From Histomonas meleagridis (lineage: Eukaryota > Parabasalia > Tritrichomonadida > Dientamoebidae): 64,000 bases of DNA. The stretch is taken from the NCBI GenBank assembly GCA_020186115.1, contig WSYJ01000092.1, positions 62,001-126,000 of the forward strand, written 5' to 3'. This document shows, piece after piece, positions 23,600 through 55,034 of the stretch; the first letter of the stretch is position 1; the number at the start of each line of letters is the position of its first letter. The notes below the pieces were generated by a model. It was not told the DNA's origin, searched no databases, and worked only from the letters and a program-made list of their open reading frames with translations. Made by a program: the position numbers and the translations under genes.

Positions 23600-26500
23600 A
23601 TGCAGCAAAATCCCCCTGTCCAAACAAAAATGGACTGTGATCAACAAGGGAAACAAGAAGTGGGAAAGGGGGTCCCAAATAAACATGCAATGAATTATAA
23701 TCCACAAGTTTTTCAGACAAATTTCCCAAATCAACATTTCTTTCAAAGTGATCCACATCAACCAATGAAGATACAAGAACATGCAACATACCAAAAGGGG
23801 CTTCAAATTTATACCCAATCAACTGATAGAACATATACAGAACCTCAATTCTTTTCTCAAATTCCTCCTGGAATGCAAGTGCAAACTCGACCAGGAGTTC
23901 AACAAATATTTAATTCGTCACAATCTCCTAATGTTTTCGATAAACATATTCATCCAGATCATCGACCCAACATTTATGCACGACGTCCAGTTACACAGCC
24001 ACCTTTTAGTGAAACAATCCGAGTTCAACGATCTCCACCTATGCAAACCATCATTAATAATCAAATCTTTACTACAGAAATAAAGAAAACATCTGAACAT
24101 ACACAAACGCACTGCCGTGACACTGGCCCATCACTACAACCGAAACAAGTCATTATTATCAAGCGACCAGTTCAATCTACATCAACCCTCAAAAACGCAT
24201 CGAACATCATTAGCAAAGCTCTCTTTGACTGCGATGACCCATGTGTTGCCACGCAACTTATAGCTGATGGTGCTGATGTCAATTATGTTGATGAAGAAAA
24301 TCGCACGGCATTATTCAAATGCAAAAACGTTGAAGTTGCTAACATCTTAATTAAGTCAGGCATTAATATCAATGCGCGAGACAAGAGCGGGCGCACAGCC
24401 TTATTTTGTAACAACGAAGATATTGTAGAATTACTTATTCAGAATGGGGCAGATGTTAATGCCAAAGATAACAATGACGAGAACGCTTTATTTTGTAGTA
24501 ACTTTGCTGTTATCAAACTTCTTATTAAAGCTGGTATTGATATTAATGCGCGAAACAAAGAAGGAAAGACGGCATTATTTGGGGCGAAGACACAAGCGTC
24601 ATTAGCATTAATTAAATCAGGGATTAACATTAATATCAAAGATAATAATGGACGGACTCCATTATTTGGTAATAACTCGTCACAAATCGTTAAGTTATTA
24701 ATCAAAAATGGAATTGACTTTAATGCTATTGATAATCAAGGAAGGAATGCATTGTTTGGTTGTAATAATGTATTAATCATTAGAGCATTAATTGAAGCTG
24801 GAATCAATGTTAATATTGTCGATATGTATGGTAAGACAGCTTTGTTCGGCGCTAAGCCTAAAGCGTCAAGCGAACTAATTAAGGCAGGAATCAATTATAG
24901 AGTTAGAGATAGGGAAGGGAAAACGGCATTCTATTTAAGACCGAAAACAGAAGTAACAAAAATACTTAAAGATGGAGGAGTGGAAGAAGTCAGTCAACAA
25001 ATGATACAGGAGCTGTGCCAACAAGATCGAAGTCAAACGAGCTTCAGTACATATCAAATGTATGGCCAAGAAATGTCACAGCAAAATGTGTACCAGAAAC
25101 AACAAATGTATAATTCAGTACCAAATGAACAACAGCAGCAAATGTTCGAAGGATTATCGCAACAACAAATAAATCGAAATGACTTCGAACGAACGAATTA
25201 TCAACAACAGATATTCCAAAAAATACCGCAGCAACAAATAAATCGAAGTGACATCGAACAAACGAATTATCAGCCGCAGATATATAAAGCAATGACACAG
25301 CAACAAATAGAACAAAATGACACAGAACAACATATATTCCAAAAAATACCACAACTACAAATAAATCGAAGTGACATCGAACAAACGAATTATCAGCCGC
25401 AGATATATAAAGCAATGACACAGCAACAAATAGAACAAAATGACACAGAACAACATATATTCCAAAAAATACCACAACTACAAATAAATCGAAGTGACAT
25501 TGAACAAACGAATTATCAGCCACAGCAACAAATGTTTCAAGAAACAAATCAAAACGACGTTAATCAAATCTTCAAAACAATGCCGCACCAAGGCACACAT
25601 CATATTGAGCAAACGGAGATGAATTACAATCCGCAGCAGCAACAAATTTATCCTCGCAATCTATATGTAGCGCAACAAATTAATGACCTTAAACAAACAG
25701 AAATAAAATATCAACAACAAATGTTTGAAACAATGCCACAGCCAAATCAACAGATATATCAAGAAGTACCACAGAATATATATTATCAACAACGAATTCC
25801 AATAAACATAAATACGCAACCACAATCGCCTAAAGTAATGAATCAACAAATTTATCCAAATATTAATGTACAACAACAAATGTATCCACAACAACAAATG
25901 TATCCAAAAATTATCCAAATTCCACAACAACAACAAATAATTTATTCACCACAACAACAAACATATTCACTTAATCAACTCCAAAACATTTATCAAAAAC
26001 AATCGTACATAGTCCCTCCAGTACATAATTATCAAACTTATATTAATCAGAACAAAATGTTCCAACCATATCAAGTTGAACAACCACCACAACCAAAAAC
26101 GATATTTAATTGTAATAACATTAATGAGTTAATCCAACTCTTAAACAATGGTGTCAATGTTAATTCTGTTGATAACTTAGGCCGCACAGCATTATTTAAT
26201 TGTAAGAGCAAAGAGATTGCTCAACTGTTAATTGAAGTTGGCATTAACATTAATGCCAAAGACAAAAATGGTCGCACAGCATTATTCTGTAATGACTATG
26301 ATGTAATGCAATTATTACTTCAGTCTGGTATCGATATTAATTCACGAAATAAAAATGGGAAAACAGCACTGTTTGGACAAACGAATCCGAATAATGCATT
26401 ACTATTAATACATAATGGAATTGACGTGAATTTAAAAGATAATAATTATCAAACAGCTTTGTTCAATTGTAATGATACACGTATTGTAACAGCTCTAATT

Positions 26501-26671
26501 AATGCGGGTGTTGATATTAACGCAAAGGATAAAGACGGAAAGACGGCGCTCTTCACTTGCACTAACCCAAGAGTTGCAAAGTTATTAATAGACGCAGGAG
26601 CAGACGTAAATGTGCAGGACAAATTCGGTAAGACTGCACCTTTGGCCAGGAATTTAAAACAAAAAAAATAA
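23600..26671 (+). CDS. Ankyrin-repeat protein with central Gln-rich prion-like region
   Basis: A 1,023-residue protein in four parts. Residues ~1-195 are a Gln/Pro/Asn-rich leader. Residues ~200-450 carry about eight ankyrin repeats of the trichomonad type (NAKDNNDENALFCSN, DINARNKEGKTALFG). Residues ~455-830 are a very Gln/Asn/Tyr/Met-rich low-complexity region. Residues ~835-1020 carry a second block of five to six ankyrin repeats (NSVDNLGRTALFNC). The Q-rich centre contains nearly identical 41-residue tandem copies (25241-25520). Ankyrin blocks bind protein partners. The Gln/Asn-rich centre resembles aggregation- or condensate-prone prion-like domains (inference). No membrane segment, signal peptide or catalytic domain was seen. 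The antisense ORF over the Q-rich part is a composition shadow. The start follows an Inr-like TTCATTG. Confidence 0.85.
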   Translation: MQQNPPVQTKMDCDQQGKQEVGKGVPNKHAMNYNPQVFQTNFPNQHFFQSDPHQPMKIQEHATYQKGLQIYTQSTDRTYTEPQFFSQIPPGMQVQTRPGVQQIFNSSQSPNVFDKHIHPDHRPNIYARRPVTQPPFSETIRVQRSPPMQTIINNQIFTTEIKKTSEHTQTHCRDTGPSLQPKQVIIIKRPVQSTSTLKNASNIISKALFDCDDPCVATQLIADGADVNYVDEENRTALFKCKNVEVANILIKSGININARDKSGRTALFCNNEDIVELLIQNGADVNAKDNNDENALFCSNFAVIKLLIKAGIDINARNKEGKTALFGAKTQASLALIKSGININIKDNNGRTPLFGNNSSQIVKLLIKNGIDFNAIDNQGRNALFGCNNVLIIRALIEAGINVNIVDMYGKTALFGAKPKASSELIKAGINYRVRDREGKTAFYLRPKTEVTKILKDGGVEEVSQQMIQELCQQDRSQTSFSTYQMYGQEMSQQNVYQKQQMYNSVPNEQQQQMFEGLSQQQINRNDFERTNYQQQIFQKIPQQQINRSDIEQTNYQPQIYKAMTQQQIEQNDTEQHIFQKIPQLQINRSDIEQTNYQPQIYKAMTQQQIEQNDTEQHIFQKIPQLQINRSDIEQTNYQPQQQMFQETNQNDVNQIFKTMPHQGTHHIEQTEMNYNPQQQQIYPRNLYVAQQINDLKQTEIKYQQQMFETMPQPNQQIYQEVPQNIYYQQRIPININTQPQSPKVMNQQIYPNINVQQQMYPQQQMYPKIIQIPQQQQIIYSPQQQTYSLNQLQNIYQKQSYIVPPVHNYQTYINQNKMFQPYQVEQPPQPKTIFNCNNINELIQLLNNGVNVNSVDNLGRTALFNCKSKEIAQLLIEVGININAKDKNGRTALFCNDYDVMQLLLQSGIDINSRNKNGKTALFGQTNPNNALLLIHNGIDVNLKDNNYQTALFNCNDTRIVTALINAGVDINAKDKDGKTALFTCTNPRVAKLLIDAGADVNVQDKFGKTAPLARNLKQKK
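25241..25520 (+). repeat. 123-bp in-frame tandem repeat inside the ankyrin gene
   Basis: Copies begin at 25241, 25364 and 25487 (spacing exactly 123 bp, 41 codons). The unit runs from INRSDIEQTNYQPQ through KAMTQQQIEQND to HIFQKIPQLQ. The second and third copies differ at very few bases, the third is incomplete, and a more diverged copy precedes them. Length in multiples of three keeps the frame. This is a recent expansion by slippage or unequal exchange. Confidence 0.85.
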
Positions 26672-26808: not shown

Positions 26809-27235
26809 ATGCGTCAGAAAAACTTTGAAACGGATCTTCTGCTTCTTCTGCTTCTTCTCGTTTTTATGGAGCATTTGACTGATTTTTGGTGCTGCGTTCC
26901 AAAAAATGTAAACAGATTAAATTCTTTTTGTTTTGTTTTTGCTATATTTATGTTTGATGAAGCAACAAGAGCACTCACAATAACAAATTTAAGTATGATA
27001 ACTAATGATTGCATTTGCATAGATAAACATAATAGAATTTCTGTAATTGATATTCCAATTCAATCATTTGGAAGATGGCATTGAAATAGGCGATTCTGTT
27101 AACACGATATTTTTGGAAGCTTTTTATTTGAGTCACTTCATAGAATCAGTTATCATAGGGAAAGATGCTACAACAATAGATTCATATTCTTTTTGCTGGA
27201 TGCTATTCAAATATGAAACGCATTTTTTCCCCTAA
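26809..27235 (+). pseudogene. Frameshifted BspA-like LRR fragment
   Basis: Two overlapping frames (26809-27084 and 27047-27235) together read like one degenerate LRR_5 segment. The second frame contains IESVIIGKDATTIDSYSFCW, which fits the LxxVIIGxxVTTIxxxAFxxC unit, and the first contains SVIDIP. A frameshift near 27047-27084 separates them. There is no complete repeat array, signal peptide or membrane anchor, so this is a dead fragment. It abuts the duplicated DUF3447 piece directly. Confidence 0.5.
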
Positions 27236-27250
27236 TTTTTTAATTTTGTT

Positions 27251-27674
27251 AATATTATTTTCATAAATATATTTAAAGATATCATTTCTATTAAACATAA
27301 TTGCTGTTTCATATGTTTTATAAAATGATGAATGATTTTGCTCACATAAATGAATGATTTCTTCATTCCCACCTGCAACAGAGTATTTACCTGTGTTTAT
27401 TACATTTGCTCCATTCATAAGTAAATATTTAAAACATTTAACTGATCCGAAAAATGCTGCATAATCAATTAATGTAACATTTGGTTTGTTAATAAATGAA
27501 TATCTTTCATAAAGTGATGGTTCAATTATTTGATTAAAATTAAAATTTGTTTGTGATGACATTTCTTGAAGTTTTTCTACTTCATCATTACGAATTATTG
27601 TTGCAATTTTATTTGGATTATGTCCTTCTTTAATGAATTGCTTGTGAAGTTCAAAATTTTCAGAAAGATCTTTG
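27251..27674 (-). pseudogene. Truncated recent copy of a DUF3447/ankyrin gene
   Basis: This segment repeats 30491-30914 at a constant offset of 3,240 bp. Across about 410 bp I see only two or three base differences (for example at 27289 and 27292). The copy starts abruptly at the CAGAAAGATCTTTG junction (27661-27674 against 30901-30914) and loses similarity beyond it. It encodes the middle of a DUF3447-type region (MSSQTNFNF to FKYIYENN, 27562 down to about 27250), then a short unrelated tail. It has neither the N-terminal part nor the ankyrin repeats. It is a pseudogene created by a recent local duplication. Confidence 0.85.
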
Positions 27675-27682
27675 TTTTTTTT

Positions 27683-28775: not shown

Positions 28776-30146
28776 TTATTTTTTTTCATGAAGTAAATTT
28801 ACTATTTCTGTGTAACCTTTTTGGTGTGCAATTTGAAATGCTGTCTCAAATTATTGAAACATAAATAAAATTATTCAAATGAATTATTTTTGCATTAACA
28901 TCAATTCCTTTATCTAAAAGTATTTTTACTATTTCTATTTTATTATTTCTAGCTGCTATATGAAGTGCTGTTTCAAATTATTAAAACATATTCCAAATTA
29001 TTAAAACATATATAAAATTATTAAAACATATTTTAAATTATTCAAATGAATATCTTTTGCATTCACATCAATTCCTTTATCTAAAAGTATTTTTATTATT
29101 TCTATATTATTATTTCCAACTGCTATATGAAGTGCTGTTTCAAATTATTAAAACATATTCTAAATTATTAAAACATATATTAAATTATTCAAATGAATAT
29201 TTTTTGCATTAACATCAATTCCTTCTTTATCTAAAAGTAATTTTACTATTTCTATATTATTATTTCCAACTGCTATATGAAGTGCTGTTTTAAATTATTA
29301 AAACATATTCCAAATTATTAAAACATATATAAAATTATTAAAACATATATAAAATTATTCAAATGAATATTTTTTGCATTAACATCAATTCCTTTATCTA
29401 AAAGTAATTTTACTATTTCTATTTTATTATTTTTAACTGCTATATGAAGTGCTGTTTCAAATTATTAAAACATATTATAAATTATTAAAACATATTTCAA
29501 ATTATTAAAACATATTACAAATTATTATAACATATTATAAATTATTAAAACATATTCCAAATTATTAAAACATATTATAAATTATTAAAACATATTCTAA
29601 ATTATTAAAACATATATAAAATTATTAAAACATATTATAAATTATTAAAACATATTCTAAATTATTCAAATGAATATTTTTTGCATTAACATCAATTCCT
29701 TCTTTATCTAAAAGTAATTTTACTATTTCTATATTATTATTTCCAACTGCTATATGAAGTGCTGTTTCAAATTATTAAAACATATTCCAAATTATTAAAA
29801 CATATTATAAATTATTAAAACATATTCTAAATTATTAAAACATATCCAAAATTATTAAAACATATATCAAATTATTAAAACATATTCTAAATTATTCAAA
29901 TGAATATTTTTTGTATTAACATCAATTCCTTCTTTATCTAAAAGTAATTTTACTATTTCTATATTATTATTTCCAACTGCTATATGAAGTGCTGTTTCAA
30001 ATTATTAAAACATATTCCAAATTATTAAAACATATATAAAATTATTCAAATGAATATTTTTTGCATTAACATCAATTCCTTTTTCTATAAGGAATTTTAC
30101 TATTTCTATATTATTTATTTTTAACTGCTATATGAAGTGCTGGTTT
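28776..30146 (-). repeat. Ankyrin modules interrupted by 20-bp minisatellite spacers
   Basis: On the minus strand eight ankyrin modules are arranged in tandem: 30047-30146, 29897-29998, 29667-29768, 29360-29458, 29190-29291, 29043-29141, 28876-28974 and the C-terminal 28776-28847 ending in TAA. Modules 2-7 are exactly 99 or 102 bp (33 or 34 codons, ETALHIAVGNNNIEIVKLLL type). Between modules, always at the same codon, lie spacers of 48, 128, 208, 68, 48, 68 and 28 bp. Each equals n copies of a 20-bp unit (AAATTATTAAAACAT plus 5 variable bases, plus-strand reading) plus a final AAATTATT, so length is 20n+8. Every spacer is flanked by TTTGAA (minus strand), and every spacer breaks the frame or adds a stop. 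Module 8 has one extra base. Confidence 0.9.
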
Positions 30147-30217
30147 AAATTTTATAATAAAAATTTAAGTCATATTTTAAAATATCAAATTGTTTTAATA
30201 AAATTTCAATAAAATTT

Positions 30218-31456
30218 TCAAACACTTCTCTTTAAATTAATATATTTATGATTAATAAGGTAGTCAAAAAATTCTTCCTTGATAGAAATCTCTGAAATCT
30301 CTAAAAAATTTAATGAAATTTTATTGTTTCCGAGGAAATATAAAAAAATAATAATATTTCCTGTTCTAATAGAATTGATGATATGATTCTTATTGATATT
30401 CATTCCTTCTTCTTTTAAAAATGAAAGAAGATCAAAATTATCATGTAAAATACATTCTTTTCCTAATTCTTCTAAATTATTATCAGGATTAATTTTGTTT
30501 TCATAAATATATTTAAAGATATCATTTCGATGAAACATAATTGCTGTTTCATATGTTTTATAAAATGATGAATGATTTTGCTCACATAAATGAATGATTT
30601 CTTCATTCCCACCTGCAACAGAGTATTTACCTGTGTTTATTACATTTGCTCCATTCATAAGTAAATATTTAAAACATTTAACTGATCCGAAAAATGCTGC
30701 ATAATCAATTAATGTAACATTTGGTTTGTTAATAAATGAATATCTTTCATAAAGTGATGGTTCAATTATTTGATTAAAATTAAAATTTGTTTGTGATGAC
30801 ATTTCTTGAAGTTTTTCTACTTCATCATTACGAATTATTGTTGCAATTTTATTTGGATTATGTCCTTCTTTAATGAATTGCTTGTGAAGTTCAAAATTTT
30901 CAGAAAGATCTTTGAAATTATTTTCATTTTTGAATTTAAACCTTTGAGATTGCAGTTTTATGAATTCTTCTTCTGAAACATAATGTATATAAAAAGGATT
31001 ATTTTTATTTTGAATAATTTTTGATTCTATTAATTTACTTTCAATCATTTTTTCAAGAAGATAATTTGATTCTTCGTTATTAATTGATAACAAAAATTGA
31101 GTAACAACATTAATTAAGGTATTATTCGATTTTATTTCTGCTTTCTGTAAATACTTGATGCATAATTTTTCAAAGCCTTTGGAAACAAAATATGAATAAA
31201 TAATTCTGCTAATAATGTGAAGGAATGAAATTGGAAATTCTTGAGAAAAGTATTGAAAAGAAGATTCGACTGATTGATCAATATTTTCCTCGTTTAAATC
31301 GAAAATAATTCTCTCAATAGCTTGCAATATTTGAAGGTTTTCGTTGTATTTGATAATCGCTTGACTTTGATTTCCCCCCACTTGAAATAAATTGATTAAT
31401 TGATAAGATTTTGTTTGCTTTTTGATCGACAAATAGTGGTTTTTTGTTCGAAACAA
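30218..31456 (-). pseudogene. DUF3447 N-terminal region of a trichomonad ankyrin gene (broken)
   Basis: An open frame of 412 codons encodes the helical DUF3447-type N-terminal half (YNENLQILQAIERII, then SVKCFKYLLMNGANV and SVAGGNEEIIHLCEQNHSSF) typical of trichomonad ankyrin proteins. The frame opens at a TTG after a stop, and the first ATG lies far inside, so the native start is missing or in another frame (an ATG at 31587 is in a different frame). It ends at TGA (30218). The sequence then continues as recognisable protein (ENFIEILLKQFDILKYDL) in the next frame and leads into the ankyrin array at 30146. Three single-base shifts between 30218 and 30080 add up to three. The gene is probably dead, though indels in A/T runs could be assembly errors. 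Confidence 0.7.
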
Positions 31457-53662: not shown

Positions 53663-53921
53663 ATTCATAAACCGAAAAATGTTTAAAACTTTTTTCTCTT
53701 TAGTGATGTAACACAAAATATTAAATTGTTTCGTAATCAAAATAAAAAATTAACGAATTATGTTGCCATGAAATTGGTTATTGATTAATCAAGATGGATA
53801 TCTATAGAAAGAGAATGAGTTATGATTGCAAAAATAAAAATATTTCTTTTGAGTGAAAAAATCAAAATAAAAAATTATTTTTTATTAGATCAGTTTTAGT
53901 AAAAAAATGAGAGAACTTTTT

Positions 53922-54166
53922 TTACTTATCTTGAAGTAATTCAACGATATCTTGGTGATCATTATGAGCTGCTTTCGCCAATGCTGTATAAAGTAAAACA
54001 TATAAATCCCAAATCTCGTTTTTAAACACCAAAAAATTTTGATAAACTTTATAAAACTCAAAGAAATGTTTGTAACTTTAACATCAATGTCGTTTCTTTC
54101 AAGAAGCAATAACACGATTTCTGAAGCGCCTTTTTCTGCAGCAAAAATCAAAGGAGTGTTGAACAA
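53922..54166 (-). pseudogene. Broken ankyrin-repeat fragment
   Basis: The minus strand encodes an ankyrin repeat (NTPLIFAAEKGASEIVLLLL, then ERNDIDVKVTN), then about 80 bases of non-ankyrin sequence, and then the last repeat and end (YTALAKAAHNDHQDIVELLQDK and stop at 53922) in a different frame. The frame has no ATG at its 5' end. The interruption lies at the same place in the repeat (between the DV.. loop and TAL) as in the array at 28776-30146. It is a dead fragment, or a gene piece with an unrecognised intron. Confidence 0.6.
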
Positions 54167-54257
54167 ATTGAAGAAATATTAAAACATTTTAATAAACAAG
54201 ATAATTAAAGTGAAATTTGAAACTAGATATAGTTTTCTTTATTAAGTTTTGTATTGC

Positions 54258-55034
54258 TTATGCAAGCAATAATGATTGAGAAGTTTTGTCACCCTTATCC
54301 TTTGGGAAGATTGTCTTACGAACTCTCCACCAAACAATAACTGTGCAGAATGCTCCTAAACACAAACCAGCAAGTACGTCATCAAAGTGATGCCTGAAAT
54401 CTCTGATTCTTGTGCAACCAACGTAAATTGCAAGAGCAGGGAAAATGAAGCAAACAATTGTCCAGAGCATATACCTGGTCTTGACAAGCTTCTGCAAGAA
54501 GAGGCATGGGTATAATAAGCCGGACATTGCACCTGATGAGTGACCACTTGGGAATGATTTGAACTCTTCATCAATATCGCAGGTTGTAGTAGAATTATAT
54601 CCACAGTAAGCATACATATCTGGGCGAGCACGTCCTACATAAGATTTGAAGAGATTTGTGGTCGTATTATTGAATGCAAAAATAGCAAGACCAATATAAA
54701 AAGCTGTCATGGGGTTGAACTTTCTCATAATTTTAGGTGCTTTGAGTGAAATAAAATAGATGGCCCAATAAAAAACAAAAGATCCAATAATGATGATTGT
54801 AACCATAAGTTCAAAATTGACTTGATCCTTTTTTGCACGTGGGTAGTTGGAAAGGTCATCTTCTGGTGGGACATATAACTTTTGAAGAGGGGTGTATTTC
54901 GATGCAACCCATGTAATGCAAAGAATGGCTGCACAAAGAAGATTTGGCCAATCCAAAAAATAAAGGATTCTATCTTTTGTGAAAAATCCTTTGGATTTGA
55001 CGTCATTGCCGTTAATGTATTCTTGTTGCAACAT
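54258..55034 (-). CDS. PAP2-family lipid phosphate phosphatase
   Basis: A 258-residue membrane phosphatase. The three PAP2 signatures are intact: KSYVGRARPDMY (motif 1, K..R.RP), FPSGHSSGA (motif 2, PSGHS) and TRIRDFRHHFDDVLAG (motif 3, R....HH..D). Six membrane helices are visible, for example LLCAAILCITWVAS, VTIIIIGSFVFYWAIYFI and LGAFCTVIVWW. Such enzymes dephosphorylate phosphatidate, lysophosphatidate or related lipid phosphates, and dolichyl or sphingolipid phosphates are alternatives. The active site faces the lumen or the outside. The ATG at 55034 is the first in frame. The 3' end lies only 91 bp from the ankyrin fragment. Confidence 0.9.
   Translation of the reverse strand: MLQQEYINGNDVKSKGFFTKDRILYFLDWPNLLCAAILCITWVASKYTPLQKLYVPPEDDLSNYPRAKKDQVNFELMVTIIIIGSFVFYWAIYFISLKAPKIMRKFNPMTAFYIGLAIFAFNNTTTNLFKSYVGRARPDMYAYCGYNSTTTCDIDEEFKSFPSGHSSGAMSGLLYPCLFLQKLVKTRYMLWTIVCFIFPALAIYVGCTRIRDFRHHFDDVLAGLCLGAFCTVIVWWRVRKTIFPKDKGDKTSQSLLLA

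What the first reader, a model, noticed from the sequence alone, without database searches (positions are those of the whole stretch)
28776..30146. Ankyrin array with frame-keeping modules split by 20n+8 bp minisatellite spacers
Seven spacers (28, 68, 48, 68, 208, 128, 48 bp) all fit 20n+8 with n = 1, 3, 2, 3, 10, 6, 2. Each sits at exactly the same codon of the repeat and is flanked by TTTGAA (minus strand). The modules between them are exactly 99 or 102 bp and differ by in-frame substitutions and a whole-codon indel, while the spacers break the frame. If the whole array were dead DNA one would expect indels of any size inside modules. The pattern fits either amplification of one interrupted ankyrin unit as a higher-order satellite, or spacers removed from the RNA (an introner-like element). 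Removing all seven spacers gives a continuous frame from module 7 to the native stop.
Basis: partly seen in the sequence, partly recalled or inferred. Interest (0 to 1): 0.85.

Follow-up and report, generated by a model that had tools for sequence, protein, structure and literature searches.

The report
Ankyrin genes split by intron-like spacers
In a poultry parasite, the repeat units of many ankyrin genes look like protein-coding sequence, yet frame-breaking non-coding spacers sit between them at one fixed codon, as introns would but without recognisable splice sites.

Summary
The window is Histomonas meleagridis; the spacers lie in a DUF3447-ankyrin gene. The pattern is genome-wide: the spacer-module boundary ATTATTTNNNACAGCACTT occurs 2,393 times, reversed control 0. 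In 42 module chains, 233 of 286 gaps above 10 nt are 20n+8. In diverged genes 80 of 122 spacers are exactly 68 nt, at the same codon, with mean identity 62%. Modules evolve like coding sequence: 37 nearest pairs show no stop-making change (null minimum 36) and twice the neutral synonymous share, though the 8 closest pairs alone are not significant. Spacers lack a synonymous excess in the incoming frame. So the modules are probably translated and the spacers removed or bypassed. There is no GT-AG and no conserved RNA fold; a single -1 frameshift fails for 30 of 79. Best reading: intron-like elements removed from RNA by an unknown route. No transcript was available, exact ends are unresolved, and the window's own copy has a frameshift in module 1.

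The parts
30218..31456 (-). DUF3447-ankyrin gene body, open frame of 412 aa (listed start TTG)
   Evidence: PF11929 E=5.8e-9
30144..30223 (-). eighth spacer, 68 nt of diverged type, plus 12-nt linker; holds the stop of the 412-aa frame
   Evidence: my count
30056..30143 (-). ankyrin module 1, 88 nt, one extra base, frame broken
29996..30055 (-). spacer 48 nt plus 12-nt linker
29906..29995 (-). ankyrin module 2
29766..29905 (-). spacer 128 nt plus linker
29676..29765 (-). ankyrin module 3
29456..29675 (-). spacer 208 nt plus linker
29369..29455 (-). ankyrin module 4
29289..29368 (-). spacer 68 nt plus linker
29199..29288 (-). ankyrin module 5
29139..29198 (-). spacer 48 nt plus linker
29052..29138 (-). 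ankyrin module 6
28972..29051 (-). spacer 68 nt plus linker
28885..28971 (-). ankyrin module 7
28845..28884 (-). spacer 28 nt plus linker
28776..28844 (-). terminal ankyrin repeat, 22 codons and stop, in the frame of the modules

Best explanation
The array belongs to a large DUF3447-ankyrin gene family of Histomonas meleagridis in which ankyrin repeats are followed, at one fixed codon of the linker, by a non-coding A/T-rich spacer of typically 68 nt with an internal 20-nt period. The spacers act like introns: the repeats are translated as one protein after the spacers are taken out of the RNA, by a route that uses neither GT-AG ends nor a conserved RNA fold. In some genes, including the window's, the spacer has become a minisatellite of one 20-nt unit (spacers of 28 to 887 nt) and module-plus-spacer units have been amplified. 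SHOWN: position, lengths, copy number, a coding signature in modules, its absence in spacers, no GT-AG at 16 registers of 68 nt, no conserved fold. INFERRED: that full-length protein is made, that removal is at RNA level, where the exact ends are. The window copy itself (frameshift in module 1) may be decayed or hold an assembly error.
For: Same codon in 13 of 13 independently chosen genes and in 19 of 20 regions chosen by the minisatellite. Modules: 37 nearest pairs, synonymous share .239 against a null maximum of .165, stop-making changes 0 against a null minimum of 36; 33 pairs .384 against .207 and 43 minisatellite-type pairs .293 against .275. Inner modules without a stop: 104 of 104 in diverged and 138 of 140 in minisatellite chains. 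Spacers.170 against a null of .180 in the incoming frame. Spacer phases are mixed (158, 81 and 47 gaps in the three phases), so their removal or bypass is needed for one frame. Several genes end with a degenerate last repeat and a stop in the modules' frame. A natural spacer-free first junction in L029 keeps exactly the four linker codons expected after a 68-nt removal. Of 92 body matches of P0003, by my count 66 end at residues 392-411, where its linker codon is 395/396.
Against: No RNA was seen. The 8 closest pairs give .183, inside the null (maximum .266), and by simple site counts synonymous, non-synonymous and spacer differences are alike there (.158.155.134). Minisatellite-type modules are less constrained (omega-like .44 against .28). 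Stop-making changes in spacers are somewhat few in the two outer frames (26 against 38.7 and 25 against 35.2 expected), and columns 57-77 had a synonymous share above the null (.239, upper bound .218), although one search counted otherwise and found it inside. 49 of 79 spacers could be read with one -1 shift, more than any shuffle. No single 68-nt register leaves all 79 linkers free of stops (6 at best). Modules were sought on stop-free stretches. Gene bodies are broken or partial in 8 of the 20 minisatellite regions, and the window copy has a frameshift.
Confidence: 0.58

Rival explanations
1. The functional protein ends at the first spacer (DUF3447 plus one ankyrin repeat, about 400 aa); downstream modules are untranslated relics, and arrays are higher-order satellites kept alike by recombination.
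For: Open frames end there in many genes; database homologues of unnamed source end at the same codon; closest module pairs look near neutral; the window copy is broken.
Against: Across wider distances modules show 0 stop-making changes and a clear synonymous excess; inner modules stay open; the last repeat often ends with a stop in frame.
Confidence: 0.16
2. Ribosomes pass the spacers by bypassing or frameshifting, so nothing is removed from the RNA.
For: 49 of 79 spacers allow a single -1 shift, null maximum 41 or 38; stop-making changes are somewhat few in the two outer frames; TTTAAAT stands at column 66 in 16 of 79.
Against: 30 of 79 cannot be read so; no synonymous excess in the incoming frame; minisatellite spacers reach 887 nt and fall in all three phases; many steps in a row would be needed per protein (inference).
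Confidence: 0.1
3. The spacers are ordinary spliceosomal introns with very degenerate sites.
For: Exon/intron-like pattern of constraint; column 1 is A or G in 73 of 79 and column 2 is T in 77; in 19 of 79 some GT and AG near the ends would be frame-compatible.
Against: GT and AG together in 0 of 79 at each of 16 registers; the Trichomonas 3' motif (recalled) has 3 places in the genome against 2 for its control.
Confidence: 0.08
4. Spaced modules are silent donor cassettes that recombine into expressed spacer-free genes, or the spacers are cut out of DNA at some stage.
For: Would keep modules coding-like without removal from RNA (inference).
Against: Patterns of the spacer-free junction with up to one mismatch find 7 and 5 places in the genome, some with an ankyrin glycine absent from this family, against 2,393 spaced boundaries. 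These patterns need the common codons, so other spacer-free genes would be missed.
Confidence: 0.06

Closest known systems
Nonconventional introns of euglenids (PMC4770533, abstract read)
   Same: Inserts in nuclear genes with non-canonical borders, removed by an unknown mechanism, direct repeats at some ends
   Different: Theirs form a stable RNA structure bringing the ends together; none is conserved here. Here one element per protein repeat, typical length 68, 20-nt period, one gene family
Spliceosomal introns of trichomonads (PMC12316389, passages read)
   Same: Non-coding inserts between coding segments
   Different: No GT-AG in register, far more per gene; the published H. meleagridis annotation has at most one intron per gene, 573 in all (PMC8529796, passages read)
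Introner elements (recalled)
   Same: Many related copies in one genome
   Different: As far as read, all here lie at one codon of one repeat type, with no known splice sites
Translational bypass elements, T4 gene 60 and yeast mitochondrial byps (recalled; one search was a listing only)
   Same: Frame-breaking inserts inside live genes
   Different: Here far longer and more variable, many per gene
Coding or intronic minisatellites (general knowledge)
   Same: Tandem unit with variable copy number
   Different: 17-nt core kept and 3 nt free; spacer also exists in diverged, non-minisatellite form

Membership tests
Spliceosomal intron | GT at the 5' end and AG at the 3' end in register | tested here: not met
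   0 of 79 with both at each of 16 registers
Spliceosomal intron | absent from mature transcript | not testable with these tools
   no transcript data
Spliceosomal intron | non-coding insert between coding segments | tested here: met
Euglenid nonconventional intron | RNA structure joining the ends | tested here: not met
   RNAalifold 0.0 kcal/mol with no pair; single-sequence z +0.21
Euglenid nonconventional intron | pairing of +4..+6 with -8..-6 | tested here: inconclusive
   55 of 79 at one of 16 registers, 2 to 13 at the others; invariant T and A columns, so chance is not excluded
Introner element | copies in many unrelated genes | tested here: inconclusive
   302,946 nt searched (0.7% of the genome), enriched for this family; not all outside hits were read
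-1 programmed frameshift site | readable frames on both sides of a shift | tested here: not met
   30 of 79 not readable
Non-coding higher-order satellite | modules change neutrally | tested here: not met
   the 8 closest pairs alone are compatible with neutrality
Non-coding higher-order satellite | tandem composite units | tested here: met
DUF3447-ankyrin protein | Pfam PF11929 with ankyrin repeats | tested here: met
   150 of 150 scored (of 1,695 candidates) over the cut-off in the genome

The most novel reading that the evidence does not exclude
Several thousand intron-like elements of a class without recognisable splice sites or RNA fold interrupt one gene family at one codon per protein repeat; they are removed from RNA by a machinery that reads the 20-nt period (17-nt core) and tolerates any number of units.
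Probability: 0.4. Interest if true: 0.95.

Novelty: new variant of a known kind. Interest (0 to 1): 0.84.

Why it matters
If transcripts lack the spacers, the genome holds at least four times as many intron-like elements (2,393 boundaries of one exact type) as its 573 annotated introns (PMC8529796, passages), of a kind without known splice signals and in an intron-poor lineage. The origin and mechanism of non-canonical introns would become testable in a 43-Mb genome, and the gene models of a large family would need revision. If transcripts keep the spacers, a large family that is truncated at one codon but keeps coding-like remains would need another explanation.

Tried and rejected
Reading the spacers as protein with a frameshift: rejected as a general rule (30 of 79 unreadable; no synonymous excess in the incoming frame). 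Conserved RNA fold: none found. Canonical introns: none in register. IQ-TREE codon models did not optimise omega (it stayed at 1.000), so counts against simulated neutral change were used. A test of length constraint through indels in 3' flanks failed, since most flanks did not align as clear homologues; no claim of length constraint rests on it. GG as a mark of the last unit was not borne out in minisatellite arrays (.28 in the last unit.22-.26 elsewhere). The exact ends could not be fixed: 68 nt fits the spacer-free junction of L029; a 71-nt removal (columns 4-74) would avoid the stops seen (inference). Columns 60-77 as exon: rejected, since 15 of 79 have a stop at column 72. Eight paper searches listed nothing on these spacers; that library lacks most subscription journals and all preprints. 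Papers seen as passages: PMC8529796, PMC12316389, PMC3111441, PMC11415386, PMC12428144, PMC10063853; abstract: PMC4770533.

Full report
What was checked. The window is stretch C55:62001-126000 of an assembly of 43,276,120 bases in 121 contigs. A Histomonas meleagridis protein lies on a contig of 3,384,422 bases, the length of contig C120 here, and the published virulent-strain assembly has that largest contig and an N50 of 673,467, the length of contig C63 here (PMC8529796, passages; its totals, 43,414,808 bases in 187 contigs, are slightly larger). The finding is the 3' part of a minus-strand gene whose open 412-aa body carries DUF3447. The seven spacer lengths are as reported; an eighth 68-nt spacer of unlike sequence precedes module 1, and module 1 has one extra base (my count).

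The pattern is general. A mainly minisatellite stretch of the window finds 345 matches in the genome. I fetched 20 regions around such matches; 19 of them hold chains of three or more modules, L025 does not. A profile of the 30-residue ankyrin unit, run on 37 sources (the window and L009-L044), gave 42 chains with 289 gaps; one chain is the ordinary ankyrin gene at 24382-24733. Gap minus four linker codons is 68 in 117, 48 in 25 and 51 in 12, and is 8 modulo 20 in 233 of the 286 gaps above 10 nt. In the diverged set (18 chains, 122 gaps) 80 are exactly 68; in the minisatellite set (21 chains, 161 gaps) 151 are 20n+8. The 51 and 71 classes look like 48 and 68 plus one extra exon codon (my reading); 69 (8) and 70 (4) do not fit. 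Thirteen genes chosen by a protein search all show the spacers after the body and between modules.

Copy number. ATTATTTNNNACAGCACTT, the end of a spacer and the start of a module, occurs 2,393 times (1,232 and 1,161), its reversed control 0 times. ATATGTTTTAATAATTTNNNACAGCACTTCA occurs 338 times, control 0. The DUF3447 search scored 150 of 1,695 candidates and all 150 passed the cut-off, so 150 is a lower bound.

The modules look translated. With disjoint nearest pairs and a neutral model using the substitution spectrum of the spacers, diverged modules have a synonymous share of .384 against a null mean of .151 and maximum of .207 (33 pairs), minisatellite-type modules .293 against a maximum of .275 (43 pairs). 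When pairs are chosen by module plus spacer distance, 37 pairs give .239 against a maximum of .165, with 0 stop-making changes where the simulations made at least 36; 18 pairs give .257 against .191; the 8 closest pairs give .183, inside the null (maximum .266). Counts over all, non-independent pairs point the same way for diverged modules and are closer to neutral for the minisatellite type. All 104 inner modules of diverged chains are free of stops, and 138 of 140 in the minisatellite set. Modules were found on stop-free stretches, which is a bias; but a lost module would leave a long gap, and in the diverged set there are two such gaps (194 in L029, 209 in L044).

The spacers do not. The 79 distinct diverged 68-nt spacers from 17 chains share 62% identity on average and 38% at least; columns 1-80 are 54% T, 33% A, 9% G, 4% C, with a loose 20-nt motif and one strong internal signal, GG at columns 58-59 in 74 and 75 of 79. 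There is no synonymous excess in the incoming frame (.170 against .180); in the outgoing frame the share is .169 against .135, inside the null, but columns 57-77 alone gave .239, above it, and stop-making changes are somewhat few in both frames. A second count put columns 60-77 inside the null, with 19 stop-making changes against 14.9 expected. All 79 are open up to column 3 and from column 78, with stops between. So the non-coding block is about 68 to 74 nt; the ends are not fixed, and the best 68-nt registers leave a stop in 6 of 79 linkers.

How it could work. GT and AG never occur together at any of 16 registers; RNAalifold finds no pair; single folds are no more stable than shuffles. The Trichomonas vaginalis 3' splice motif (letters recalled) is not enriched (3 places against 2). 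A -1 frameshift could serve 49 of 79, more than the null maxima of 41 and 38, but not the other 30, nor the minisatellite spacers, which fall in all three phases. I hold removal from RNA by an unknown route as most likely, with the limit that no RNA was seen. A spacer-free junction at the first repeat of L029 has exactly the four linker codons expected after a 68-nt removal; P0003, from an unnamed source and 60% identical to that gene, is spacer-free at the same place. L031 keeps 9 nt more there, and L048 looks spacer-free too.

Relatives. Of the homologues marked ena without a name, 20 whose letters I read reach this codon; P0001, P0005, P0007, P0009, P0010, P0031, P0036, P0037 and P0039 end exactly one residue after the K-D position, P0030 ends at it, and eight run on for some residues without a second repeat; P0003 and P0032 pass one junction. 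The second search behind this scored only the 7,992 best candidates. Whether these contigs are DNA or cDNA is unknown; if cDNA, they would be evidence that the first spacer is retained. Tritrichomonas foetus P0015 has ankyrin junctions without an insert, while P0046 has a hydrophobic stretch at one such junction, perhaps an in-frame spacer.

Minisatellite form. In 887 units of the minisatellite set the 17-nt core is 90 to 100% conserved at each place while the first three places vary (commonest base .42 to .86), in first, inner and last units alike. This is unexplained; it would fit selection on each unit, or a way of growth that leaves three free bases. Neither was tested. Gene bodies match in one piece without stops in 12 of the 20 minisatellite regions and are broken or partial in 8.

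Verdict. Transcript data decide.

Noticed in passing
window 27203-27680, minus strand: Partial second copy of the same gene body (residues 182-330 at 95% identity; DUF3447 in an open frame of 119 aa), downstream of the array.
   Followed up: partly
window about 53900-54250, minus strand: Just after a PAP2 gene (54258-55034) lies a remnant of the family: two ankyrin modules with a spacer between them, matched by the spacer profile at E=6.5e-6.
   Followed up: partly
L009-L028 and window 28845-30055: The 20-nt unit is a nearly fixed 17-nt core plus three hypervariable bases, in first, inner and last units alike.
   Followed up: partly
P0046 (Tritrichomonas foetus TRFO_07820, protein database): A hydrophobic stretch sits at one ankyrin junction, where Histomonas genes have the spacer; the interruption may be older than Histomonas.
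   Followed up: no
window 25163-25525: The spacer-free ankyrin gene at 23600-26671 holds a 123-nt tandem repeat inside its open frame.
   Followed up: no
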